From NCBI GenBank assembly GCA_030696345.1, contig JAUYSK010000015.1:62001-126000 (forward strand): a stretch of 64,000 nt of DNA, in the 5' to 3' direction. The stretch comes from Azonexus sp. Its GTDB lineage: Bacteria > Pseudomonadota > Gammaproteobacteria > Burkholderiales > Rhodocyclaceae. Positions 140 through 11,964 of this stretch are shown in pieces. Position 1 is the first letter of the stretch. Every line of letters begins with the position of its first letter. Below the pieces are notes generated by a model. It was given only the letters and a program-made list of their open reading frames with translations, searched no databases and was not told the DNA's origin. Position numbers and translations under genes: made by a program.

Positions 140-1480
140 TTACTTCAAGCCGTTGATCCACTTGGCGATGATCGCCGCGTCCTCCTTCGGCAACTGCGGT
201 TGCGGCGGCATCGGGATGAAGTCAGGCCAGTTTTCCGGCTTGGGCGCGTAGATCAGGGCGACAATCTGCTCATCGCTATAGCCCTTCTGCGCGACATCCT
301 TGTAGGCTGGGCCGACCAGTTTCTGATCGGCCGAGTGACAAGCCAGGCAGCCGTTCTTTTCCAGCGCGACTTCGGCCGGGCTCAGAGTGGCTACCGCGGC
401 AGCCTTCTGCGCGTTTTTGGCTTCTTCGGAAGCGGCCTTCGAGCGGGCGACAAAGTCGTCGCTCTGCGCCTTCGACTGGGCCATCGCTTCGCTGGTCAGC
501 GACAGCCGCATGCCATGGCGTAGCGTCGCCATCGACAGGACGGTGATGAAAGCCAGACCAACGATGCTCCACAGCTTGCCTTTGGAGAGATCGGGGTTGA
601 AGAAATCCTTGATCGTCAGGTAGGCAGCGCCGAGGATGCTCACCACGCCGAGGATGATCAGCCAGTACCAGCCGGCATTGAAGAAATTCTCGATGCCGTA
701 GCTCGGGAAGTGGAAGAGAACCAGCGGGCCGGCGAACAGGTTCAATACTGTCGGCAGCAGGAACCAGCTCTTGCCGGTATTGACCAGCACATCGCCGGCC
801 TGACGCGTCACTTCATCGTCGCTTTTGCGCTTGGCCGTGCCGTAGATCATCATGAACAGGCCGGTCACCGCAAACGAGGCGAGGTAGAAATGCACCAGAC
901 GGAAGAAGGTGTCGGCGCGGAACAGGGCATCCCAGAAATGGGTGTTAAGGGTCCACGTCGTCGGCGTCATGTAGAGCTGAACCGTTGCCATGAAGACCAG
1001 CGGCAGGGTCAGGAACAAGGCGACGGCAGCGGTGCCGATGGCCAGATGCAGGCTCTTGCGATGCTCCAGCTTGTGCCAGGTGTACTTGTACAGGTAGGAG
1101 AGCAGGAAGGCGGCGATATTGCCGTAGATGATGTGCAGCCACTGCGGCGAGTTCATGATCGCCGCCGCGTAAAACAGCGGCGTAAACATGACACTGATCA
1201 GCAGCAGCGGCGCGACACCCCACAACGCTCCCATGTTTTCGCAGATGGTGACTGGCGTGGTCAGCAGGTAGGCAACGCGGTCGAAGACCGGATTGTTCTC
1301 GCGGGCGCCGCGCTTGTTGAAATACACCGAACCCGTCGAAGCGCCGAGCAGGACGTTGATGAATAGGATGTGTACCAGCCAGGCAACGACCAGCAGCACG
1401 GTTAACACGACATCGACTGCTTCCAGACCGCCGGTAGGTATCGGCAATGGAAGGTCGTTGGGAATGAAATTGAATTGCAT
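140..1480 (-). CDS. Polytopic membrane protein (CydA-like) with C-terminal class I cytochrome c domain
   Basis: ORF 446 aa; many TM segments, FRLVHFYLASFAVTGLFMM resembles CydA helices; C-terminal CLACH heme motif with distal PMPP. Confidence 0.65.
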   Translation of the reverse strand: MQFNFIPNDLPLPIPTGGLEAVDVVLTVLLVVAWLVHILFINVLLGASTGSVYFNKRGARENNPVFDRVAYLLTTPVTICENMGALWGVAPLLLISVMFTPLFYAAAIMNSPQWLHIIYGNIAAFLLSYLYKYTWHKLEHRKSLHLAIGTAAVALFLTLPLVFMATVQLYMTPTTWTLNTHFWDALFRADTFFRLVHFYLASFAVTGLFMMIYGTAKRKSDDEVTRQAGDVLVNTGKSWFLLPTVLNLFAGPLVLFHFPSYGIENFFNAGWYWLIILGVVSILGAAYLTIKDFFNPDLSKGKLWSIVGLAFITVLSMATLRHGMRLSLTSEAMAQSKAQSDDFVARSKAASEEAKNAQKAAAVATLSPAEVALEKNGCLACHSADQKLVGPAYKDVAQKGYSDEQIVALIYAPKPENWPDFIPMPPQPQLPKEDAAIIAKWINGLK

Positions 1481-1510
1481 GTTGAATTGTCCTCGTGTCG
1501 ATTGGCGCGA

Positions 1511-2863
1511 TCAGTGTTTGCTGTCGGCGTTGAGGGTCACCAGATAGGCGGCCAGCGCAGCACGTTCCTCGTCGGTGCCGGCAAACGGCGGCATGTACGG
1601 CGTGGCCGGCGAGTTGAGCTGACCGATGCGGTGATAGATGGTCGCTTCATCCCAGCCCTTGACCCGCGTTTTGACCGAGTTGATGCCGTTGACCGTATGG
1701 CAATAGCGGCACTCGAACAGATAGAGTTGTTCGCCGACCTTGACCTTGTTTTCCGGCGTGATCTTGCGCAGCTCGTCGGGCAGGAAGACGGCCTGTTTCA
1801 GATAGCCTTCCTTGTTGATCAGCGGCATGTCCTGGACGCGGATACCGTTGGCGTACATGTAGCCGTAGATGATGTAAGGCTTGCGGACAAACTCGCGGAC
1901 CCGCTCGAATTCGCCGATCAGCGTGCCGCTGGCGACCAGCAGGCCAATGGCGGCCAGCATCGGTGCCTTGGTTGGTCTGAAGAACAGGTAGGCCGACGAG
2001 ACAACCGCCAGAGCAACGAGACCGAGCGTGATCTGCACAGCCAGTTGGGGATCCACGGCAAAACGACGGGTCACGGCACCGACCGAGAACAGGTCCTTCG
2101 CGGCCTGCGGGAACTGCAGGTAGTACCAGTAACCGAAGACAAGCAGCGGAATCACGCTGGCGTAGAGAAACTTGCCGAAGAAGCGGATGCCCTTTTGCCG
2201 GGTTTCCGCGTCATCTTTGGTAAAGAACCAGGTCAGCACCATGGCGCCGGCCGATGCCCAGAGAATGGCAAAGAAGGTGCGGAAGCCGAGTGACGGGATC
2301 CAGGATGGGTTCATCAGCGATGCTACATAGTCCGGCTTGGCCGGGAACTCGGAGGCCAGCCAGTTGCCCGGTGTCATCTGGAAACCGAGTATGGCGGTGA
2401 TGATCGCCATGGTCAGCCAGGAGGCGACGGCGTAGCCAACGACTAGCTTGAAATGGCCCGCCTTGGCCGGGGTACCGATCGGTTTGCTTTTCCAGGTCAG
2501 GAAGAACATCAAGAGCAGGATCATCTCGACGTTGAAGACGATCCACTCGACGAACCACTTCCAGAAGAAGACTCGCAGCAGGGCACCAATCGCCGCCGGG
2601 TTGATGATGTTGACGTGCACCCAGATACCGATCCCGGTCAGCGCGCCAACGGCCGTAGCCAGAATAAACAGTGTAAACAGTACCTTGTAGGTCAGTTCGT
2701 CGAACTTTTTGTCGTTATTCTTGATGGCGAAATACTGCGCGAATGCCAGGACGATACTGCCGCCGACAGCCGCGTGTGAAACGAAGACATGCACGATCGC
2801 GTCAAAGGCAAAGATAAACCTGTGACCGAACAGAGGCATGGAGAATATTGGAAAATCGAACAT
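1511..2863 (-). CDS. Cytochrome bd-like oxidase subunit I-type membrane protein fused to C-terminal cytochrome c domain
   Basis: MFDFPIFSMPLFGHRFIFAFDAIVHV..., TGIGIWVHVNIINP..., C-terminal CRYCH and YMPPF; start chosen at ATG 2863 with aagggggg SD; ORF track start is upstream. Confidence 0.65.
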   Translation of the reverse strand: MFDFPIFSMPLFGHRFIFAFDAIVHVFVSHAAVGGSIVLAFAQYFAIKNNDKKFDELTYKVLFTLFILATAVGALTGIGIWVHVNIINPAAIGALLRVFFWKWFVEWIVFNVEMILLLMFFLTWKSKPIGTPAKAGHFKLVVGYAVASWLTMAIITAILGFQMTPGNWLASEFPAKPDYVASLMNPSWIPSLGFRTFFAILWASAGAMVLTWFFTKDDAETRQKGIRFFGKFLYASVIPLLVFGYWYYLQFPQAAKDLFSVGAVTRRFAVDPQLAVQITLGLVALAVVSSAYLFFRPTKAPMLAAIGLLVASGTLIGEFERVREFVRKPYIIYGYMYANGIRVQDMPLINKEGYLKQAVFLPDELRKITPENKVKVGEQLYLFECRYCHTVNGINSVKTRVKGWDEATIYHRIGQLNSPATPYMPPFAGTDEERAALAAYLVTLNADSKH

Positions 2864-3027: not shown

Positions 3028-3108
3028 CCCCGGGAAGTGACCAAACGCCGCGCGACAATCGGTCACTCCGTCGAAATGCCAGGCGCGACAATTGGTCACT
3101 TCCCGGGG
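3028..3108. promoter_or_regulatory. Repeat array in divergent intergenic region, candidate RegA-type operator region
   Basis: Outer inverted repeat ccccgggaagtgacca (3028-3043)/tggtcacttcccgggg (3093-3108); inner direct repeats cgcgacaatcggtcact (3051-3067) and cgcgacaattggtcact (3084-3100). Confidence 0.6.
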
Positions 3109-3195: not shown

Positions 3196-4482
3196 GTGTC
3201 AGATATCGCGGTGATTGACTCACTGACTCAGGTTACCCAGCTTCGCCTCATCAACCTGCGGTGGCTTTCCGTGCTGGCGATGGCGATTGCAGCGATCATC
3301 AGCCCCAGCATTCTTGGCTCTTCCGATCTCATGCCGCGTTTGCTTGCTTTGGCCACGGTGATTGGCTGCGCCAATGTTTGCTTGTTGGTGGCAGCAATGC
3401 TTTACCGTGGAGATCCCGAAGGAATTCCCCTCTTCTCGCCAATCGTTCAGCTTACTTTTGATCTGGCTGCATGGAGCGCGTATGTCTATCTCTCTGGCGG
3501 CGCGAGCAACCCCCTAATTTCGATCCTGTTGCCACTTGTTGCCATCGGGGCAATTATTCTGAGCAATGCCCAGGCATGGCTGATTGGCATTGCCGCTATT
3601 CTTGCCTATTCCTTTCTATGGAAATTCAATCAGCCTCTAGCTATTCACGACGCCAGAACCGCCACCAATCTCCACCTGCTTGGCATGTGGCTGGTCTTTG
3701 CGGTATCGACCATTGTTGTCATCTGGTTTATAAGGCAAATGACCAACGCCATCCGCCTACGGGATATGGCTTTGGCCGAAGCTCGCGAGCAGGCGATTCG
3801 TGATGATTGGCTGATCTCACTTGGCGCTCTGGCGGCTGGTGCCGCGCATGAACTCAGCACTCCCTTGGCAACGCTCAATGTGCTGGTCGACGATCTGCTG
3901 TTTGAGGATACGCTGGCACCTTCGCTGCATCAGGATATTGAGCTGATGAAGCGTCAGATTACGCTATGCAAGCAGGCGCTGACGCAATTGACTGAGAGGG
4001 CTGGTCATTCGAGAAGCGCAGCCAGCAACTTGGTTTCGGCCGGGACGTGGCTACGGCGCGTGGTGGCTGCTTGGCATAGCCTGAATCCAGGCGCTGAGCT
4101 GACCATCCAGATTGCCGATCAATTGACCGACTACGGTTTGAGGCCGGACGTTGCTATCGAACGAGCCATCAATAACCTGCTCGACAACGCCATCAATGCT
4201 GACTCGCGCGCGATCAAGGTACACAGCGAACTCCAGAATGGCGGTTTGTGTTGCACGATTCAGGACGAGGGCTGCGGAATATCGAGTGCAGCCTTGGGTG
4301 CATTCAATCAACGGCAACCGGCTATTTCATCGAATGGCATGGGCATAGGACTGCTGCTGGCGAGGGCAGCGGTCGAGCGTCTCGGTGGCAGCCTGGCATT
4401 AAGGCCAGGAGATATTGGCGGGAGCACCGCTTGTCTTTGTCTTCCCTGTCAAAAAATGGAGGATGTTGCAGATGGATATTGA
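3196..4482 (+). CDS. regB: Redox-type sensor histidine kinase, RegB/PrrB family
   Basis: Six-TM N-terminus, AAGAAHELSTPLATLNVLVDDLL H-box, ATPase motifs; start GTG 3196 tentative. Confidence 0.8.
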   Translation: MSDIAVIDSLTQVTQLRLINLRWLSVLAMAIAAIISPSILGSSDLMPRLLALATVIGCANVCLLVAAMLYRGDPEGIPLFSPIVQLTFDLAAWSAYVYLSGGASNPLISILLPLVAIGAIILSNAQAWLIGIAAILAYSFLWKFNQPLAIHDARTATNLHLLGMWLVFAVSTIVVIWFIRQMTNAIRLRDMALAEAREQAIRDDWLISLGALAAGAAHELSTPLATLNVLVDDLLFEDTLAPSLHQDIELMKRQITLCKQALTQLTERAGHSRSAASNLVSAGTWLRRVVAAWHSLNPGAELTIQIADQLTDYGLRPDVAIERAINNLLDNAINADSRAIKVHSELQNGGLCCTIQDEGCGISSAALGAFNQRQPAISSNGMGIGLLLARAAVERLGGSLALRPGDIGGSTACLCLPCQKMEDVADGY

Positions 4483-5029
4483 AGAACGGCGCTTGCTATT
4501 GATTGATGACGACGAGAATTACCGCGAAGTGCTAGGTCGTTCGCTCAGCCGCCAGGGCTTCATTGTCAGTGCGGCAGCGACCGCTGGTGAGGCGCTACTG
4601 CTCTGTCGGATACAGGACCCGGAATATGTCATCCTCGATCTCAATCTGGCGGGACAGTCGGGACTGAATCTGATCCAGCCTTTGCTGGATATCGCACCGG
4701 GTGCCCGTATTCTGGTCCTCACCGGCTATGCCAGTATCCCGACAGCGGTTAGCGCCCTCAAGCTGGGAGCGACACAGTATTTGCCCAAACCGGCTGACGT
4801 TCGTGAGATCGTCCGTGCTTTGCTTGATCAGCAGATCGACCTGCCGGATATCATCATTGATGAGCGGATGACCGTGCAGCATCTGGAATGGGAATACATT
4901 CAGCGCACTCTTCAAGAGCACGGTGGCAACATAGCGGCGACGGCGCGTGCACTGAAAATGCATCGTCGGTCCTTGCAGCGCAAGCTGGCCAAGAAAAGAC
5001 CTCCTGAGCAGGAGTTTCAGCCCGCTTAG
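4472..5029 (+). CDS. regA: Response regulator, RegA/PrrA/ActR family
   Basis: REC domain (LLLIDDDENYREVL, VILDLNLAGQSGLNLI) and Fis-type HTH HGGNIAATARALKMHRRSLQRKLAKKRP; overlaps regB stop. Confidence 0.85.
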   Translation: MDIEERRLLLIDDDENYREVLGRSLSRQGFIVSAAATAGEALLLCRIQDPEYVILDLNLAGQSGLNLIQPLLDIAPGARILVLTGYASIPTAVSALKLGATQYLPKPADVREIVRALLDQQIDLPDIIIDERMTVQHLEWEYIQRTLQEHGGNIAATARALKMHRRSLQRKLAKKRPPEQEFQPA

Positions 5030-5032
5030 CGC

Positions 5033-7462
5033 TCAGCTTTTTTGCAAACGCAGCGAATTGGTCACCACCGAGACTGAACTCATCGCCATTGCCGCCGCCG
5101 CGATCATTGGGTTGAGGCGGCCGGCAGCGGCAATCGGGATGGCGACGACGTTGTAGCCGAGCGCCCAGAACAGGTTCTGGCGAATGATGCTCATGGTCCG
5201 GCGGGAAAGGTCGATGCCGGCTGCAACGCGGGCAATGTCACCACCGACCAGCGTGATGTCGGCCGATTCGACGGCGATGTCGGCACCGCCGCCAATGGCG
5301 AAGCCGACGTCGGCGGCAGCCAGCGCCGGGGCGTCGTTGATGCCGTCGCCGATCATGCCAACCTTGGCACCGCTTGCCTGCAGCCTGCGGATGACCGCCA
5401 GTTTCTCGGCCGGAGTGGCGCGGGCGACCACTTCATCGATACCGACTTCGCGGGCGACGTGGCGGGCCACGGCTTCGACGTCGCCGGTGGCCATCACGGT
5501 TTTCAGGCCGAGGCGATGCAGCAGGGCAATGGCTTCGCGGGCGCCGGGGCGCGGCTGGTCGGCGATGGCGAAAATGGCCATCGGACGGCCGTCCACCGCA
5601 ACGAATACCGGTGTCTTGCCCTGTTCGGCCAGTCGTGATGCTTCATCGGCCAGCGAGCCGCCATCGATCCCCTGTTCTTCAAGCAGTGCGGCATTGCCGA
5701 CGATGACGGACTGGCCGCCAACCTCGGCCAGTACGCCACGGCCGGGCAGGGCGGAAAACGCGCTGGCAGTCAGGGTTTCCTTGAGGCGCGGCCGGCACCA
5801 GTCGGCCATGGCGCGCGCCAGGAAGTGTTCGGAGCCGGTCTCGGCGGCGGCGACCAGCGAGGCCAGTCGCGCTTCGCCCATGCCGGGCAGGATGAAGCTG
5901 TCGGTGACGACCGGCTTGCCTTCGGTGATCGTGCCGGTCTTGTCGAAAACTACGGTGGTCAGCTTGGCGGCTGTTTCCAGCGCTTCGCCGTTACGGATGT
6001 AAATGCCGCGTTTAGCCGCCTGACCGGTGCCGACCATGATCGCGGTCGGCGTTGCCAGACCTAGCGCGCAGGGGCAGGCAATAAGCAGCACGGCGACCGA
6101 GTGGGCCAAGGCGCGGGAAACCGGATGGCCGGCCAGCGCCCATCCGACGAAGGTCAGCGCGGCGACGCCACCGACGGCCGGCACGAAGCGGGCGGAAATG
6201 CGGTCGGCCAGTTTTTGCACCGGCAGTTTGCTGCCCTGCGCATGATCGACCAGCTTGACGATGCCGGCGAGCACGGTGTCGGGGCCAACGGCAGTGACGG
6301 TCATGATGAAGCTGCCATTGCCGTTCAGACAGCCGCCGATCACGTTGTCGCCAGCTACCTTGATGACCGGCAGCGATTCACCGGTAATCATCGCTTCGTC
6401 GACGGAGGAGTCGCCTTCCTGCACCCGGCCGTCAGTCGGAATCTTGTCGCCGGCACGCACCCGCAGGCGGTCGCCGAGCTGTACTTCGTCGATCGGCACT
6501 TCCCGTTCGCTGCCATCGGCCTCAAGGCGCAGCGCCGTTTCCGGTTGCAATTCGATCAGTTTGCGGATGGCTTCGCCAGCCTTGCCCTTGGCCCGCTCTT
6601 CCATGTAGCGGCCGAGCAGGACGAAAGTGCAGATGCCGGCGGCCGACTCGAAATAGACGTGGTGATGCAGCTTGAAGACGCCGGGAACACTGTAGGCCCA
6701 GGCTGCGCCGGCACCAATGGCGATCAGCGTGTCCATGTTGGCTTCGCCCTGTTTGGCCAGCATCCAGGCCTTCTTGAAAATACTGTTGCTGCTGCCGAAC
6801 AAGATGGCGGTCGACAGGCCGAATTCCATGATGCGCAGCACCGGCGAACGGTGCATCGCCATGCCGGAAATCATCACCGGCACGGTGAGAATGGCGGCTT
6901 GGATGAAGCGCTTCTTGGCTTCTTCGACGCGTTCCTTCTCGCGCTCGACGATCAGGCGGCGCTGGGCCAGGGTGTCCATCGGGCGCGGTTCGTAGCCCAG
7001 GCTGCGGACCACACCGGACACGCCATCGCGGTCGATGACGCCAAAGACGGTGACAGTCGCCGCCGCGAAATTGACCGAAGCCGAGCGCACGCGCGGGTCG
7101 CGCTTCAGCTTCATTTCAATGAGCAGGGCGCAGGAGGCGCAAGTCATGCCTTCGACGGCGACGGCGCATTCTTGAACCGGGCCGTCAATCGGTGGCTGCG
7201 GTGTGGCTGGCGCCCTGGGGGCGGCCAGCAGGTTGCCGAGCACGGCATCGAGCGTTGCCAGGAGGCGTGCTTCGGGCAGGGCCTGCGGGTCGTAATTGAT
7301 GACCAGCGACCCGATGTCAGCCACGATGCGCGCGTCTTTGACAGCCGGATGCTTGCGCAGCAGGATTTCCAGGATGTAGCACCGCTCCTGCTCCCTGATC
7401 AGCGAGGGAGCGACGACGCGGATGCGCCGCGACAGGCGATGAACGACCTGGCAATGCTTCAT
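5033..7462 (-). CDS. P1B-type heavy metal (probably copper) translocating ATPase
   Basis: HMA motif GMTCASC, CPC in TM ([16 protein letters not shown]), [19 protein letters not shown]; start at MKHCQ (7462). Confidence 0.9.
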
Positions 7463-8064
7463 TTGCCGGCGATGCTCTTGCGGTAACGAACGAGCAGGAA
7501 GACCAGATAGAAAATGGTCATCCAGGCGTTGCTGTAGGCCAGCGGCGTCTTGATCCAGCGCTTGGTGATCAGGTCCCAATGTGCCTTGACCAGATAGAAG
7601 GCGACCAGATCGTTAAGGAAATTGATGATGGCCTTCTCGGTCAGGGCGCTGGCCAATACGGGTTGCAGCCGGGCCTGCAGGGAGCCGGCCGGTGCCTCGG
7701 CAGCTGGTGTGATCAGGTTTCTGACTTTGTCGAGCAGCGGTTGGAAACCCACTTTGGCGGGTTCGCTGGCGGCCGGCTCGGTGCTGGCGGCGGGTGCAGC
7801 CTCGGTCGGTAAACCGTCGAGCAGGCCAAAGAGATGGCGGGCGGCCTGGGCGGCGGAGCAGGCCGCACTTTCATAGCGGATGGAAATTCGCTTCCAGCCG
7901 GTGTCCACCGCAGCACTGGTCAGGCCGGCCAGCGTCTGCATGCCCTGTTCGATGGCCGCACTGGCCAGCGGGCCACACAATTCGCCCGGCAGTTCCAGGC
8001 GCAGGTAGCCCGGTTCGCGGTGCAGAACGACAATGCGTTGGGCCAGTTCGGCGGCTTGCGACAT
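7459..8064 (-). CDS. HMA-like domain protein (cysteine-less), operon partner of the P-type ATPase
   Basis: [22 protein letters not shown]... fold-like repeat, TM-rich C-terminus; start at MSQAAELAQ with ggagag SD. Confidence 0.55.
7903..7915 (+). repeat. 13-bp motif copy GTCCACCGCAGCA
   Basis: Exact match by eye. Confidence 0.9.
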
Positions 8065-8075
8065 GGGACTCTCCA

Positions 8076-8459
8076 TCAGGCAGCGGGCGTTTCTTCAGCG
8101 GGTGCGGCGGCTACCGTCGGGGTGGTACCTTCCATCTTTTCCTGCGCTTCGGCCATCAGGTCGTTGAGGTTTTCCTTCTGCTGCAGGGCGAAGTCCTTGC
8201 CCATGCCGCTGACCTTGGAAAGGCCTTCGATGATTTCCTTCTGATACTTGAAGGCGATGAATCCGCCTACCACCCCGGCAGCGACGCCGGCGGCCAGCAG
8301 GGTCAGCGGGTTGCGCAGCAGGCTGGCGCCGAGTAGGCTACGGCCGGCGGCGAAACCGGTCGCCGCCATCATCGCGCCCTTGGCCAGCGGCGTGCCCATG
8401 GCGTGGCCGGCACTGCTCATCATGTGGGGCATCTGCTTCATCATTTCTTCGGTCATCAT
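8076..8459 (-). CDS. Small membrane protein, Met/His-rich N-terminus, YtxH-like C-terminal region
   Basis: MMTEEMMKQMPHMMSSAGHAMG..., single hydrophobic segment, 127 aa. Confidence 0.6.
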   Translation of the reverse strand: MMTEEMMKQMPHMMSSAGHAMGTPLAKGAMMAATGFAAGRSLLGASLLRNPLTLLAAGVAAGVVGGFIAFKYQKEIIEGLSKVSGMGKDFALQQKENLNDLMAEAQEKMEGTTPTVAAAPAEETPAA

Positions 8460-10159: not shown

Positions 10160-10834
10160 CTACTGATCAACCAGTTTGCCGTCGCGCATTCCAACTACCC
10201 GATGCACGGCGCTCGATTCCACCACCAGCGGATCGTGGCTGGTCAGCAGCACCGTTTTGCCCGCTGCCGTGAAGCCTTCGAGGATGGTCATGAATTCGCG
10301 GGAGAGGGCAGTATCGAGATTGGCGGTCGGTTCGTCAGCGATGATGACTTCCGGATCGTTGATCAGGGCGCGGGCGATGGCGACCCGCTGCTGTTCACCG
10401 CCGGACAGCCATTCGACCTTGGCCTGGCGGCGATGGCTGAGCTTCAGTTGCTCAAACAGTCCTTCGGCCGCATCAATCAACTCAGCCCGCGGGCGGCCGG
10501 TCGGAAAGCCTGGCAGGATGACGTTCTCCAAAGCCGACAAACCCTTGATCAGGTTGAACTGCTGGAAGACAAAGCCGAAACTCTGCCGGCGGATCTCGGT
10601 CAGGAAACGCTCCGGCAGGCCGGATATGTCCTGACCCTTGAAGCGCACACGGCCACTGGTTGGTCGCGCCAGACAACCGACCAGGGTCAGCAGCGTGGTC
10701 TTGCCCGAACCGCTCGGGCCGCGAAAAGCAGTGACCTTGCCGGCTTCCAGCGTCAGGTCGATGCCGCTCAAGGCCCAGTATTCGTTGGGCCGGCCCTGAT
10801 TGAAGGCCTTCTTGATTTCGGAAAGTTCGATCAT
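10160..10834 (-). CDS. ABC transporter ATP-binding protein (LolD/MacB-type)
   Basis: GPSGSGKTTLL Walker [16 protein letters not shown] signature, VIIADEPTANLD. Confidence 0.9.
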   Translation of the reverse strand: MIELSEIKKAFNQGRPNEYWALSGIDLTLEAGKVTAFRGPSGSGKTTLLTLVGCLARPTSGRVRFKGQDISGLPERFLTEIRRQSFGFVFQQFNLIKGLSALENVILPGFPTGRPRAELIDAAEGLFEQLKLSHRRQAKVEWLSGGEQQRVAIARALINDPEVIIADEPTANLDTALSREFMTILEGFTAAGKTVLLTSHDPLVVESSAVHRVVGMRDGKLVDQ

Positions 10835-11964
10835 CGCATCACCGCATCCGGGTCGGTGATCGCCGCCCGCCAGATCGGGACCAGCACGGCTGCCGTATAG
10901 GGGAAAACCGTGAAGAAGAACAGCGTGGCGACCTGCAGCCCGTCGATGGCTGGCAGTAGCGTGAAGCGCGGGTAGAGCACGGCCCAGCCCTTGAGCACCG
11001 GTTCGAAAACCGCCGCGCCAAAATGGAAGACATGCACATAGGCGCCGATGAAACCGAGCAGGAAGGCGGTCAGCGAAATGAGCAGGCCTTCCCAGAGCTT
11101 CATGCGCAGCACGTCGCCGGTTTCCCAGCCAATGGCTTTCAGAATGCCGATTTCGCGCTTTTCCTCGGCGGAAAGGCCGGAAGCCTTTTCCCAGGCGAGG
11201 ATGGCAAAGGCGAGGATGGCGCCGGCCAGCACGGTCAGGACAATGCCTTCGCGCCAGTCGAAAACGCTCTGGTAGGTGCGCAGCACTTCCTCGCGCAGGA
11301 TGGGGCGTGAGTCGGGCAGGGCGCTGGAAAGTTTGGCGGCGATGTTGCGTACTTCCTGTGGGTTGGCCACCGACAGCGCAATGTCGGTGAAATGGCCGGC
11401 CGGATATTCGAAGAAAGAACGGAAATCTTCTTCCGAAAGCAGGATGAGGTCCGCCGACAGCAATTCCGAATCTGGCGACAAGACGCTGGCGACTTCGAAG
11501 GTGAACAGCTTGCCCGAATAGGAGCGGAAGGAAATGGTGTTGTGGGCATCGAGGCCGCGCTCACGGGCCAGTGCCGCGCCGACCATGATGGTGCCGCTGG
11601 CGACCTCTTCGGCCGGGCGGGCCATGAAGGTGTAGTTGGCGTTGAGCACCGGGTCGTAGTAATAGCCCCAGAGCCGGCCTTCCATCTTCTGGACGCCACG
11701 GATACGGCCGATTTTGTCCAGATAGCCGGGCGGAATCAGATCGTGCCGGCCGGCGACCATGCGCTGCACGATCACTTCCGGCGAGCCGGCCAGGACGAAA
11801 GTCGCCTCGGTGCGCAGGGCGTTGGTGAACAGTGTTAGCGAAGCCAGCACGAAGACAAGCAGCGTGTAGGCAACGAGCAGGCCGATGTTCTTGGTTTTGC
11901 GCCGGGCCAGCGAGGCCAGCGTGAAATCAATCAGGTGACGTTGTTTTTCCAGCCAGATTCGCAT
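10831..11964 (-). CDS. ABC transporter permease, FtsX/MacB-like
   Basis: N-terminal TM, large extracytoplasmic domain, C-terminal three TM; coupled to ATPase gene by 4-nt overlap. Confidence 0.8.
   Translation of the reverse strand: MRIWLEKQRHLIDFTLASLARRKTKNIGLLVAYTLLVFVLASLTLFTNALRTEATFVLAGSPEVIVQRMVAGRHDLIPPGYLDKIGRIRGVQKMEGRLWGYYYDPVLNANYTFMARPAEEVASGTIMVGAALARERGLDAHNTISFRSYSGKLFTFEVASVLSPDSELLSADLILLSEEDFRSFFEYPAGHFTDIALSVANPQEVRNIAAKLSSALPDSRPILREEVLRTYQSVFDWREGIVLTVLAGAILAFAILAWEKASGLSAEEKREIGILKAIGWETGDVLRMKLWEGLLISLTAFLLGFIGAYVHVFHFGAAVFEPVLKGWAVLYPRFTLLPAIDGLQVATLFFFTVFPYTAAVLVPIWRAAITDPDAVMR

What the first reader, a model, noticed from the sequence alone, without database searches (positions are those of the whole stretch)
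140..2863. Two CydA-like membrane subunits, each fused to a C-terminal cytochrome c domain
Both adjacent genes encode polytopic membrane proteins with CydA-like helix motifs and end in a mono-heme c domain (CLACH, CRYCH). Canonical cytochrome bd has no heme c and uses a CydA/CydB pair. A CydA/CydA'-like pair with two tethered c hemes could be an unusual oxidase or quinol/cytochrome c oxidoreductase. The neighbouring divergent RegB/RegA pair suggests redox control.
Basis: partly seen in the sequence, partly recalled or inferred. Interest (0 to 1): 0.65.

Follow-up and report, generated by a model that had tools for sequence, protein, structure and literature searches.

The report
Paired CydA-like oxidase with tethered hemes
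Two neighbouring genes encode a matched pair of membrane proteins related to the oxygen-consuming enzyme cytochrome bd, but with built-in cytochrome c domains in place of the quinol site, so they probably form a copper-free respiratory oxidase fed by cytochrome c rather than by quinol.

Summary
Genes at 1511-2863 (subunit A) and 140-1480 (subunit B), both on the minus strand, encode two ancient CydA paralogues, each with a C-terminal mono-heme c domain (CRYCH, CLACH). Predicted folds of both match solved CydA best. A keeps the residues equivalent to the active-site ligands and carboxylates of cytochrome bd (H25, E106, E113, E324). It lacks the quinol heme b558 ligands and the Q-loop, and its partner is not CydB. 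B keeps H37 and H197 but no catalytic set. A's c domain is present in every relative read. B's is a fused c551/c552-type domain, confined to one clade in scattered Pseudomonadota and Aquificota. The genes are always adjacent, and the A and B trees mirror each other. RegB/RegA genes lie beside the pair in three lineages, and RegA-box-like repeats sit in its promoter in three genera. Best explanation: a quinol-independent, cytochrome c-fed bd-type O2 reductase (A catalytic, B its electron-entry partner), a variant of the non-quinol bd branch, which is inferred in the literature but not biochemically shown. Copper-acquisition genes nearby in several lineages, and no other copper-free oxidase detected in this genome, suggest a copper-sparing role; this is unproven. 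No activity was tested.

The parts
1511..2863 (-). Subunit A (P0002): 8-TM CydA-type catalytic subunit with C-terminal mono-heme c domain
   Evidence: PDB profile hit 5doq_A E 2e-17; AF2 + Foldseek: all eight matches with E<1e-3 are CydA-type chains of bd oxidases, the next eight are further bd subunits; PF01654 26.3 bits
2774..2791 (-). H25 (equivalent to E. coli CydA H19, active-site heme ligand) and H30 (extra His specific to this clade)
   Evidence: H25 aligned with EcH19 and present in all rows; H30 in all A rows but in none of the CydA, NOB-type or B rows
2525..2548 (-). E106 and E113 (equivalent to Geobacillus CydA E101/E108, E. coli E99/E107, proton-pathway/active-site carboxylates)
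   Evidence: Invariant in alignment A1; aligned to FMETFAFFFEA of 5doq_A; one Asp exception at E113 in Thermus
1874..1894 (-). E324-F-V-R-K-P-Y: equivalent of E445-Y-G-R-Q-P-W (heme b595 ligand and GRQPW motif)
   Evidence: HMM alignment to 5doq_A; the Glu conserved in all A rows of the tree alignment
1511..1744 (-). c domain of A, CRYCH at 1697-1711, invariant axial Met (M424)
   Evidence: Pfam Cytochrome_CBB3 E 5.9e-9; present in every A relative read
140..1480 (-). Subunit B (P0001): 8-TM CydA paralogue lacking the catalytic carboxylates, with C-terminal c551/c552-type domain
   Evidence: hhalign B vs A probability 97.9, E 4e-13; Foldseek top hits CydA; 5doq_A E 1.4e-4
1370..1372 (-). B H37 (equivalent to EcH19)
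   Evidence: Invariant; hhalign to CydA
890..892 (-). B H197 (equivalent to EcH186, a b558 ligand); candidate low-spin heme b ligand
   Evidence: Invariant in A2, but lost in the Methylosinus, Thermus and L021/L110 B proteins
140..424 (-). c domain of B, CLACH at 335-349, c551/c552 family
   Evidence: A2 profile hits 2d0s_A cytochrome c E 5.4e-16 and 1a56_A cytochrome c-552 E 1.2e-10
3037..3099 (.). Three RegA/RegR-box-like repeats GCGRCRWTNGGTCAC (3037-3051 -, 3052-3066 +, 3085-3099 +) in the divergent promoter
   Evidence: No other match with 0-1 mismatches in the window; repeats kept upstream of the pair in L008/L020 and in Zoogloea L003/L004
3196..4482 (+). RegB-type sensor kinase (GGASNP motif, HELSTPL H-box)
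   Evidence: Pfam HATPase_c; motifs; homologues beside the Agrobacterium and Methylosinus pairs
4472..5029 (+). RegA-type response regulator with Fis-type HTH
   Evidence: Response_reg E 1.9e-21, HTH_8 E 3.4e-11; 40-43% identity to the RRs beside the Agrobacterium and Methylosinus pairs
5033..7579 (-). Copper-type P1B ATPase (neighbour, link to the pair uncertain)
   Evidence: TIGR01511 572 bits over its 397 cut-off; TIGR01525 612 bits

Best explanation
A heterodimeric, quinol-independent oxygen reductase of the cytochrome bd superfamily that takes electrons from cytochrome c. Shown from sequence: two CydA-fold paralogues, predicted N-out/C-out with 8 TM helices, so both c domains lie in the periplasm, where CXXCH hemes are attached. 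A keeps the active-site diheme ligand residues and carboxylates; its quinol heme (b558) ligands are absent and there is no Q-loop. Inferred: electrons from the bc1/cytochrome c pool enter through the c551-type domain of B (or directly through the c domain of A), pass to the invariant c heme of A, which replaces b558 as electron entry, and reach the two active-site hemes, where O2 is reduced to water with protons from the cytoplasm. B is the structural and electron-entry partner in the place of CydB and may hold one low-spin heme b on H37/H197. No CydC passes its cut-off in this genome, so the active site may hold b-type hemes only. Expression is probably set by RegB/RegA (respiratory redox state), and the enzyme would be a copper-free complement to the cbb3 oxidase.
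For: CydA homology and fold of both subunits. H25, E106, E113 and E324 kept in the family; E. coli H186/M393 equivalents absent in A. Positive-inside counts 3/3/3/2 in cytoplasmic loops against 1/2/1/3 in periplasmic ones (A), and 4/4/4/3 against 0/0/2/0 (B), for an N-out topology. c domain in every A relative read. Mirrored A and B trees, adjacency in all loci where both were read. RegBA linkage in three lineages and RegA-box-like repeats in three genera. Cytochrome c1 of a bc1 complex present as electron source. In this genome the only other O2 reductase seen is a cbb3.
Against: No biochemistry for this pair was found, and related non-quinol bd-like enzymes are also unproven oxidases (PMC10839748). 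Structure models are of moderate confidence (pLDDT 76 and 79, thin alignments) and heme placement could not be modelled. A truncated haemoglobin gene next to the pair in the window genome, Zoogloea and Thiothrix could equally point to NO. All Pseudomonadota and Aquificota hosts checked also carry heme-copper enzymes, so the pair is not shown to be needed for O2 respiration.
Confidence: 0.68

Rival explanations
1. A cytochrome c-dependent nitric oxide reductase or NO-detoxifying enzyme built on the bd scaffold: the diheme site reduces NO, and the neighbouring truncated haemoglobin handles NO as well.
For: Truncated globin (PF01152) directly downstream in the window genome, Zoogloea and Thiothrix. 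Host carries NorB and NosZ, and its only two NosL genes lie 1.6-2.2 kb from the pair.
Against: This genome and several relatives already carry a cNOR-type NorB. No relative pair was seen inside a nor/nir cluster, and the Hydrogenothermaceae and Thermus loci show no denitrification genes beside the pair. The proton-pathway carboxylates of an O2 reductase are kept. Truncated globins are also linked to O2 supply (own knowledge).
Confidence: 0.12
2. Not a terminal oxidase but an electron hub: a c-type cytochrome/quinone oxidoreductase (forward or reverse electron transport), as once suggested for bd-like proteins of nitrite oxidisers.
For: Such a role was proposed for the bd-like oxidases of Nitrospina/Nitrospira if an alternative quinone site exists (PMC3578206). 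A distant branch carries octaheme proteins.
Against: Catalytic ligands are conserved in A; no Q-loop and no b558 ligands in A; the NOB-type proteins form a separate clade without heme c and without the E106/E324 equivalents.
Confidence: 0.12
3. A heme-copper-like site: the clade-specific H30 plus other residues bind copper next to the heme, and the nearby copper genes mature the enzyme.
For: Invariant H30, five residues after H25, in the A clade only. Copper genes near several pairs: NosL, CopA-type ATPase, TonB-dependent copper receptor TIGR01778, methanobactin genes. A copper site was proposed for a Nitrospira bd-like protein (PMC8115632).
Against: H25 and H30 are the only invariant His in the membrane part of A; a CuB-like site needs three, and H25 is used as the heme ligand.
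Confidence: 0.06

Closest known systems
Cytochrome bd quinol oxidase CydAB (e.g. Geobacillus 5doq, E. coli bd-I 6rko)
   Same: CydA fold; equivalents of H19/H21, E99/E101, E107/E108, E445/E378 and the GRQPW region in subunit A
   Different: No Q-loop, no H186/M393 equivalents in A, 8 TM instead of 9 (TM9 replaced by a c domain), partner is a CydA paralogue with its own c domain instead of CydB
Non-quinol branch of the bd superfamily, families OR-C and OR-N (Murali, Gennis and Hemp 2021, ISME J 15:3534; paper not held, known here through PMC10839748, PMC12342949, PMC13189123 and memory)
   Same: Quinol site absent, paired CydA/CydA' paralogues, presumed cytochrome c donor
   Different: The Nitrospirota bd-like proteins read here, taken as OR-N, lack heme c, are longer (573-593 aa) and form a separate clade. 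I believe OR-C is the c-fused family, which would contain this pair, but could not check the original.
Archaeal CydAA' (Caldivirga maquilingensis)
   Same: Two CydA paralogues form the complex
   Different: That one oxidises quinol and has no fused c domain (from memory of Murali 2021)
Deltaproteobacterial cydA chimaeras fused to multiple c-type cytochromes (noted and set aside in PMC5322542)
   Same: CydA-like domain fused to heme c, no CydB
   Different: Multi-heme tails as in the distant octaheme branch found here; no second mono-heme subunit mentioned
cbb3 and caa3 oxidases
   Same: Cytochrome c oxidases with tethered c domains
   Different: Unrelated heme-copper catalytic subunit

Membership tests
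Cytochrome bd superfamily | CydA fold / four-helix core | tested here: met
   Foldseek and HMM searches
Cytochrome bd superfamily | Ligands of the two active-site hemes (H19, E445) and acids E99/E107 in the catalytic subunit | tested here: met
   A: H25, E324, E106, E113; alignment equivalence, binding not shown
Canonical quinol oxidase (qOR) | b558 ligands H186 and M393 | tested here: not met
   A has no His at the H186 position and no Met was found at M393; B keeps only the H186 equivalent
Canonical quinol oxidase (qOR) | Q-loop between TM6 and TM7 | tested here: not met
   Only about 20 residues between predicted TM6 and TM7 of A
Canonical quinol oxidase (qOR) | CydB partner | tested here: not met
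   The adjacent partner gene is a CydA paralogue; B aligns with A at E 4e-13 and matches CydA before CydB
OR-N (nitrite-oxidiser bd-like) | Groups with the Nitrospirota bd-like proteins | tested here: not met
   Separate clade, support 100; profile A1 scores the best of them at E 1e-22 to 1e-15 against 1e-100 to 1e-206 for the c-fused relatives in Nitrospirota. That these proteins are OR-N is inferred from length and host phylum.
OR-C | Placement in the published OR-C clade | not testable with these tools
   Reference alignment and paper not held
Heme-copper oxidase | COX1 fold with six His ligands | tested here: not met
   No Pfam COX1 hit; only two invariant His in the TM part
Any O2 reductase | O2 reduction with a cytochrome c donor | not testable with these tools
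   Needs enzyme or mutant assays
Cytochrome c551/c552 (domain of B) | Sequence family with CXXCH and Met ligand | tested here: met
   2d0s_A E 5.4e-16, 1a56_A E 1.2e-10; conserved MPP
RegB/RegA two-component system | Sensor with GGxxNP motif and H-box; short RR with Fis HTH | tested here: met

The most novel reading that the evidence does not exclude
A copper-free cytochrome c oxidase, made when copper is scarce or the chain is over-reduced, that stands in for the copper-dependent cbb3 oxidase. It would be an oxidase in which two covalently tethered c hemes replace the quinol site of cytochrome bd. Support: the only two NosL genes of this genome lie 1.6-2.2 kb from the pair; a TonB-dependent copper receptor lies near the Thiothrix pair and methanobactin genes near the Methylosinus pair; the genome shows no canonical CydA.
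Probability: 0.3. Interest if true: 0.75.

Novelty: new variant of a known kind. Interest (0 to 1): 0.5.

Why it matters
Whether the non-quinol members of the cytochrome bd superfamily are real cytochrome c oxidases is open, also for nitrite oxidisers, where bd-like proteins are the presumed terminal oxidase. This pair carries its electron-entry hemes covalently on both subunits and occurs in groups with cultivated members (Zoogloea, Thiothrix, Sulfurihydrogenibium; a more distant one in Agrobacterium), so the question can be tested directly. A proven copper-free cytochrome c oxidase would be a respiratory solution not described in the literature I could read.

Tried and rejected
Copper-containing active site: only two invariant His in the TM part of A. 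Quinol oxidase: ligands and Q-loop missing. OR-N membership: separate clade. Pfam alone is misleading: hmmscan shows only the cytochrome c domains. The idea that the pair is the sole oxidase in Aquificota was dropped: both genomes also hold a CcoN-like gene with the helix-VII Tyr. The separate c-type cytochrome of Methylosinus is not a clear source of B's c domain (26%, E 0.004), and the diheme tails of the Nitrospirota B proteins L122/L123 are not clearly homologous to it either, so those look like independent fusions. RegA-box-like repeats were not found before the Agrobacterium, Thiothrix, Aquificota, Magnetococcales or Rhodospirillaceae pairs, and only one site with 3 mismatches before the Methylosinus pair (the stretch available upstream of some is short). 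A search for alternative oxidase found nothing, but its controls were silent too, so that absence is not shown. The key paper (Murali 2021) is not held; the literature searches gave only secondary mentions.

Full report
OBSERVATION. Two minus-strand genes, A (2863-1511, 450 aa) and B (1480-140, 446 aa), lie 30 bp apart, each with a plausible ribosome-binding site and each ending in a CXXCH domain. Pfam sees the c domains only, and PF01654 barely reaches A (26.3 bits). The CydA relationship is nevertheless solid. A profile of 17 A sequences finds Geobacillus CydA (5doq_A) at E 2e-17, and a profile of 16 B sequences finds the same chain at 1.4e-4. AlphaFold models (pLDDT 76.4 and 78.7) match CydA chains first, with CydB chains further down. 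A and B are paralogues (hhalign probability 97.9, E 4e-13).

ANATOMY. A has eight predicted TM helices and B likewise. Positive charges favour the cytoplasmic side for an N-out topology, clearly in B and less so in A, which puts both C-termini, and so both c domains, in the periplasm. In A the c domain stands where CydA has its ninth helix. A keeps H25 (EcH19), E106 and E113 (Geobacillus E101/E108) and E324 in REFVRKPY (E445 in AEYGRQPW). These are conserved across the A rows of the tree alignment, apart from one Asp at E113 in Thermus. The H186 and M393 equivalents that bind the quinol-side heme b558 are missing in A, and the TM6-TM7 segment is about 20 residues, so there is no Q-loop. B keeps H37 (H19) and H197 (H186) but none of the catalytic acids. 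An extra His, H30, is found in all A rows and in no CydA, NOB-type or B row. Ligand equivalence comes from alignment; no heme was modelled.

FAMILY. Close pairs occur in Zoogloea, Magnetococcales, Thiothrix, a Rhodospirillaceae MAG, Hydrogenothermaceae and Sulfurihydrogenibium, 53-90% identical. Only 2 genomes of the own genus among those sampled have it, and 3 of 399 sampled across the phylum have a full-length B, so the pair is rare and scattered. More distant pairs (A about 28-38% identical) occur in Agrobacterium, Methylosinus and Thermus plasmids, Nitrospirota, Ignavibacteriales and Prolixibacteraceae. The genes are adjacent in every locus where both could be read. In one tree all A rows group (99), all B rows group (100), and the subgroups of the two mirror each other, as expected for an ancient co-evolving heterodimer; Nitrospirota bd-like proteins and CydA stand apart (quick tree, several long branches). 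The c domain of A is present in every A read, with seven further hemes in one branch. B carries a c domain only in the close clade (c551/c552 type, 2d0s_A E 5.4e-16) and, with a different diheme tail, in two Nitrospirota. In Agrobacterium, Methylosinus, Thermus and the octaheme branch B has none. So A's c heme is probably ancestral and B's a later addition, perhaps a captured soluble electron carrier (inference).

REGULATION. RegB/RegA lie divergent from the pair. The intergenic region holds three copies of GCGRCRWTNGGTCAC (3037-3099), with no other match of 0 or 1 mismatch in the 64 kb. The pattern was taken from the window, so the independent tests are the relatives. L008/L020 has three repeats in the same place, two of them perfect, and Zoogloea has three with 1-2 mismatches although no RegBA was found adjacent there. 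The motif resembles the RegR box as I remember it (GNGRCRTTNNGNCGC, 1-2 mismatches); the papers read do not print that consensus. RegB/RegA homologues also lie directly downstream of the Agrobacterium and Methylosinus pairs (28-30% and 40-43% identity).

NEIGHBOURS OUTSIDE THE WINDOW (window position = L002 position - 12000). Downstream of B come a truncated globin, a DsbD_2 membrane protein and two NosL genes. The globin also follows the pair in Zoogloea and Thiothrix. The two NosL genes are the only ones in the genome, while NosZ is on another contig. L008 has three places that match NosL_b and one that matches NosL_a, Thiothrix a TonB-dependent copper receptor (TIGR01778, 673 bits), and the Methylosinus plasmid methanobactin genes. 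This is a suggestive but uncontrolled pattern.

FUNCTION. The genome has one CcoN, one NorB, NosZ and cytochrome c1, no canonical CydA, and no CydC above cut-off. A cytochrome c-fed, copper-free O2 reductase alongside cbb3 is the simplest reading. Electron path (inferred): cytochrome c pool, then c(B) or directly c(A), then the active-site hemes of A, then O2. Without CydDC the site may be b-type only. NO reduction is the main rival.

KNOWN OR NEW. Reviews and genome papers state that the bd superfamily has qOR, OR-C and OR-N families and that OR-N probably uses cytochrome c, without experimental proof (PMC13189123, PMC10839748, PMC12342949). CydA chimaeras with multiple c hemes were noted earlier and set aside (PMC5322542). 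The pair therefore belongs to a recognised non-quinol branch, very probably OR-C, but I could not read the founding paper. What I did not find described is the double fusion with a c551-type domain on B, the extra H30, and the recurrent RegBA and copper-gene linkage.

Noticed in passing
L002:9478-10589 and 10634-11374 (window -2522 to -626): Two NosL genes, one with a weak TAT-signal match, and a DsbD_2 protein sit downstream of the pair; they are the only NosL genes in the genome although NosZ is on another contig.
   Followed up: partly
L002:11531-11893 (window -469 to -107): Truncated haemoglobin (PF01152) directly downstream of B, also after the pair in Zoogloea and Thiothrix; in L008 only a short stretch resembling its N-terminus remains.
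   Followed up: partly
L104 8983-19329 (Methylosinus plasmid pMSC49c): A CydA-like pair, a free c-type cytochrome and RegB/RegA lie directly beside the methanobactin (copper chelator) gene cluster.
   Followed up: no
L007:6655-8697: TonB-dependent copper receptor (TIGR01778) about 3 kb downstream of the globin gene that follows the Thiothrix pair.
   Followed up: partly
L012-L016 (e.g. L012:4923-7574): 883-aa fusion of the CydA-like domain with eight CXXCH motifs, paired with a heme-free CydA' gene, in Thermodesulfovibrio and relatives; possibly a multiheme oxidase or electron hub.
   Followed up: partly
L122, L123: Nitrospirota pairs in which the B subunit carries two C-terminal CXXCH motifs, apparently an independent fusion.
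   Followed up: partly
window 7459-8459: Two small ORFs beside the copper-type ATPase without any Pfam match.
   Followed up: no
L010:9139-10471: B gene of the Rhodospirillaceae MAG is split by a frame change near codon 220, likely an assembly error or a pseudogene.
   Followed up: no
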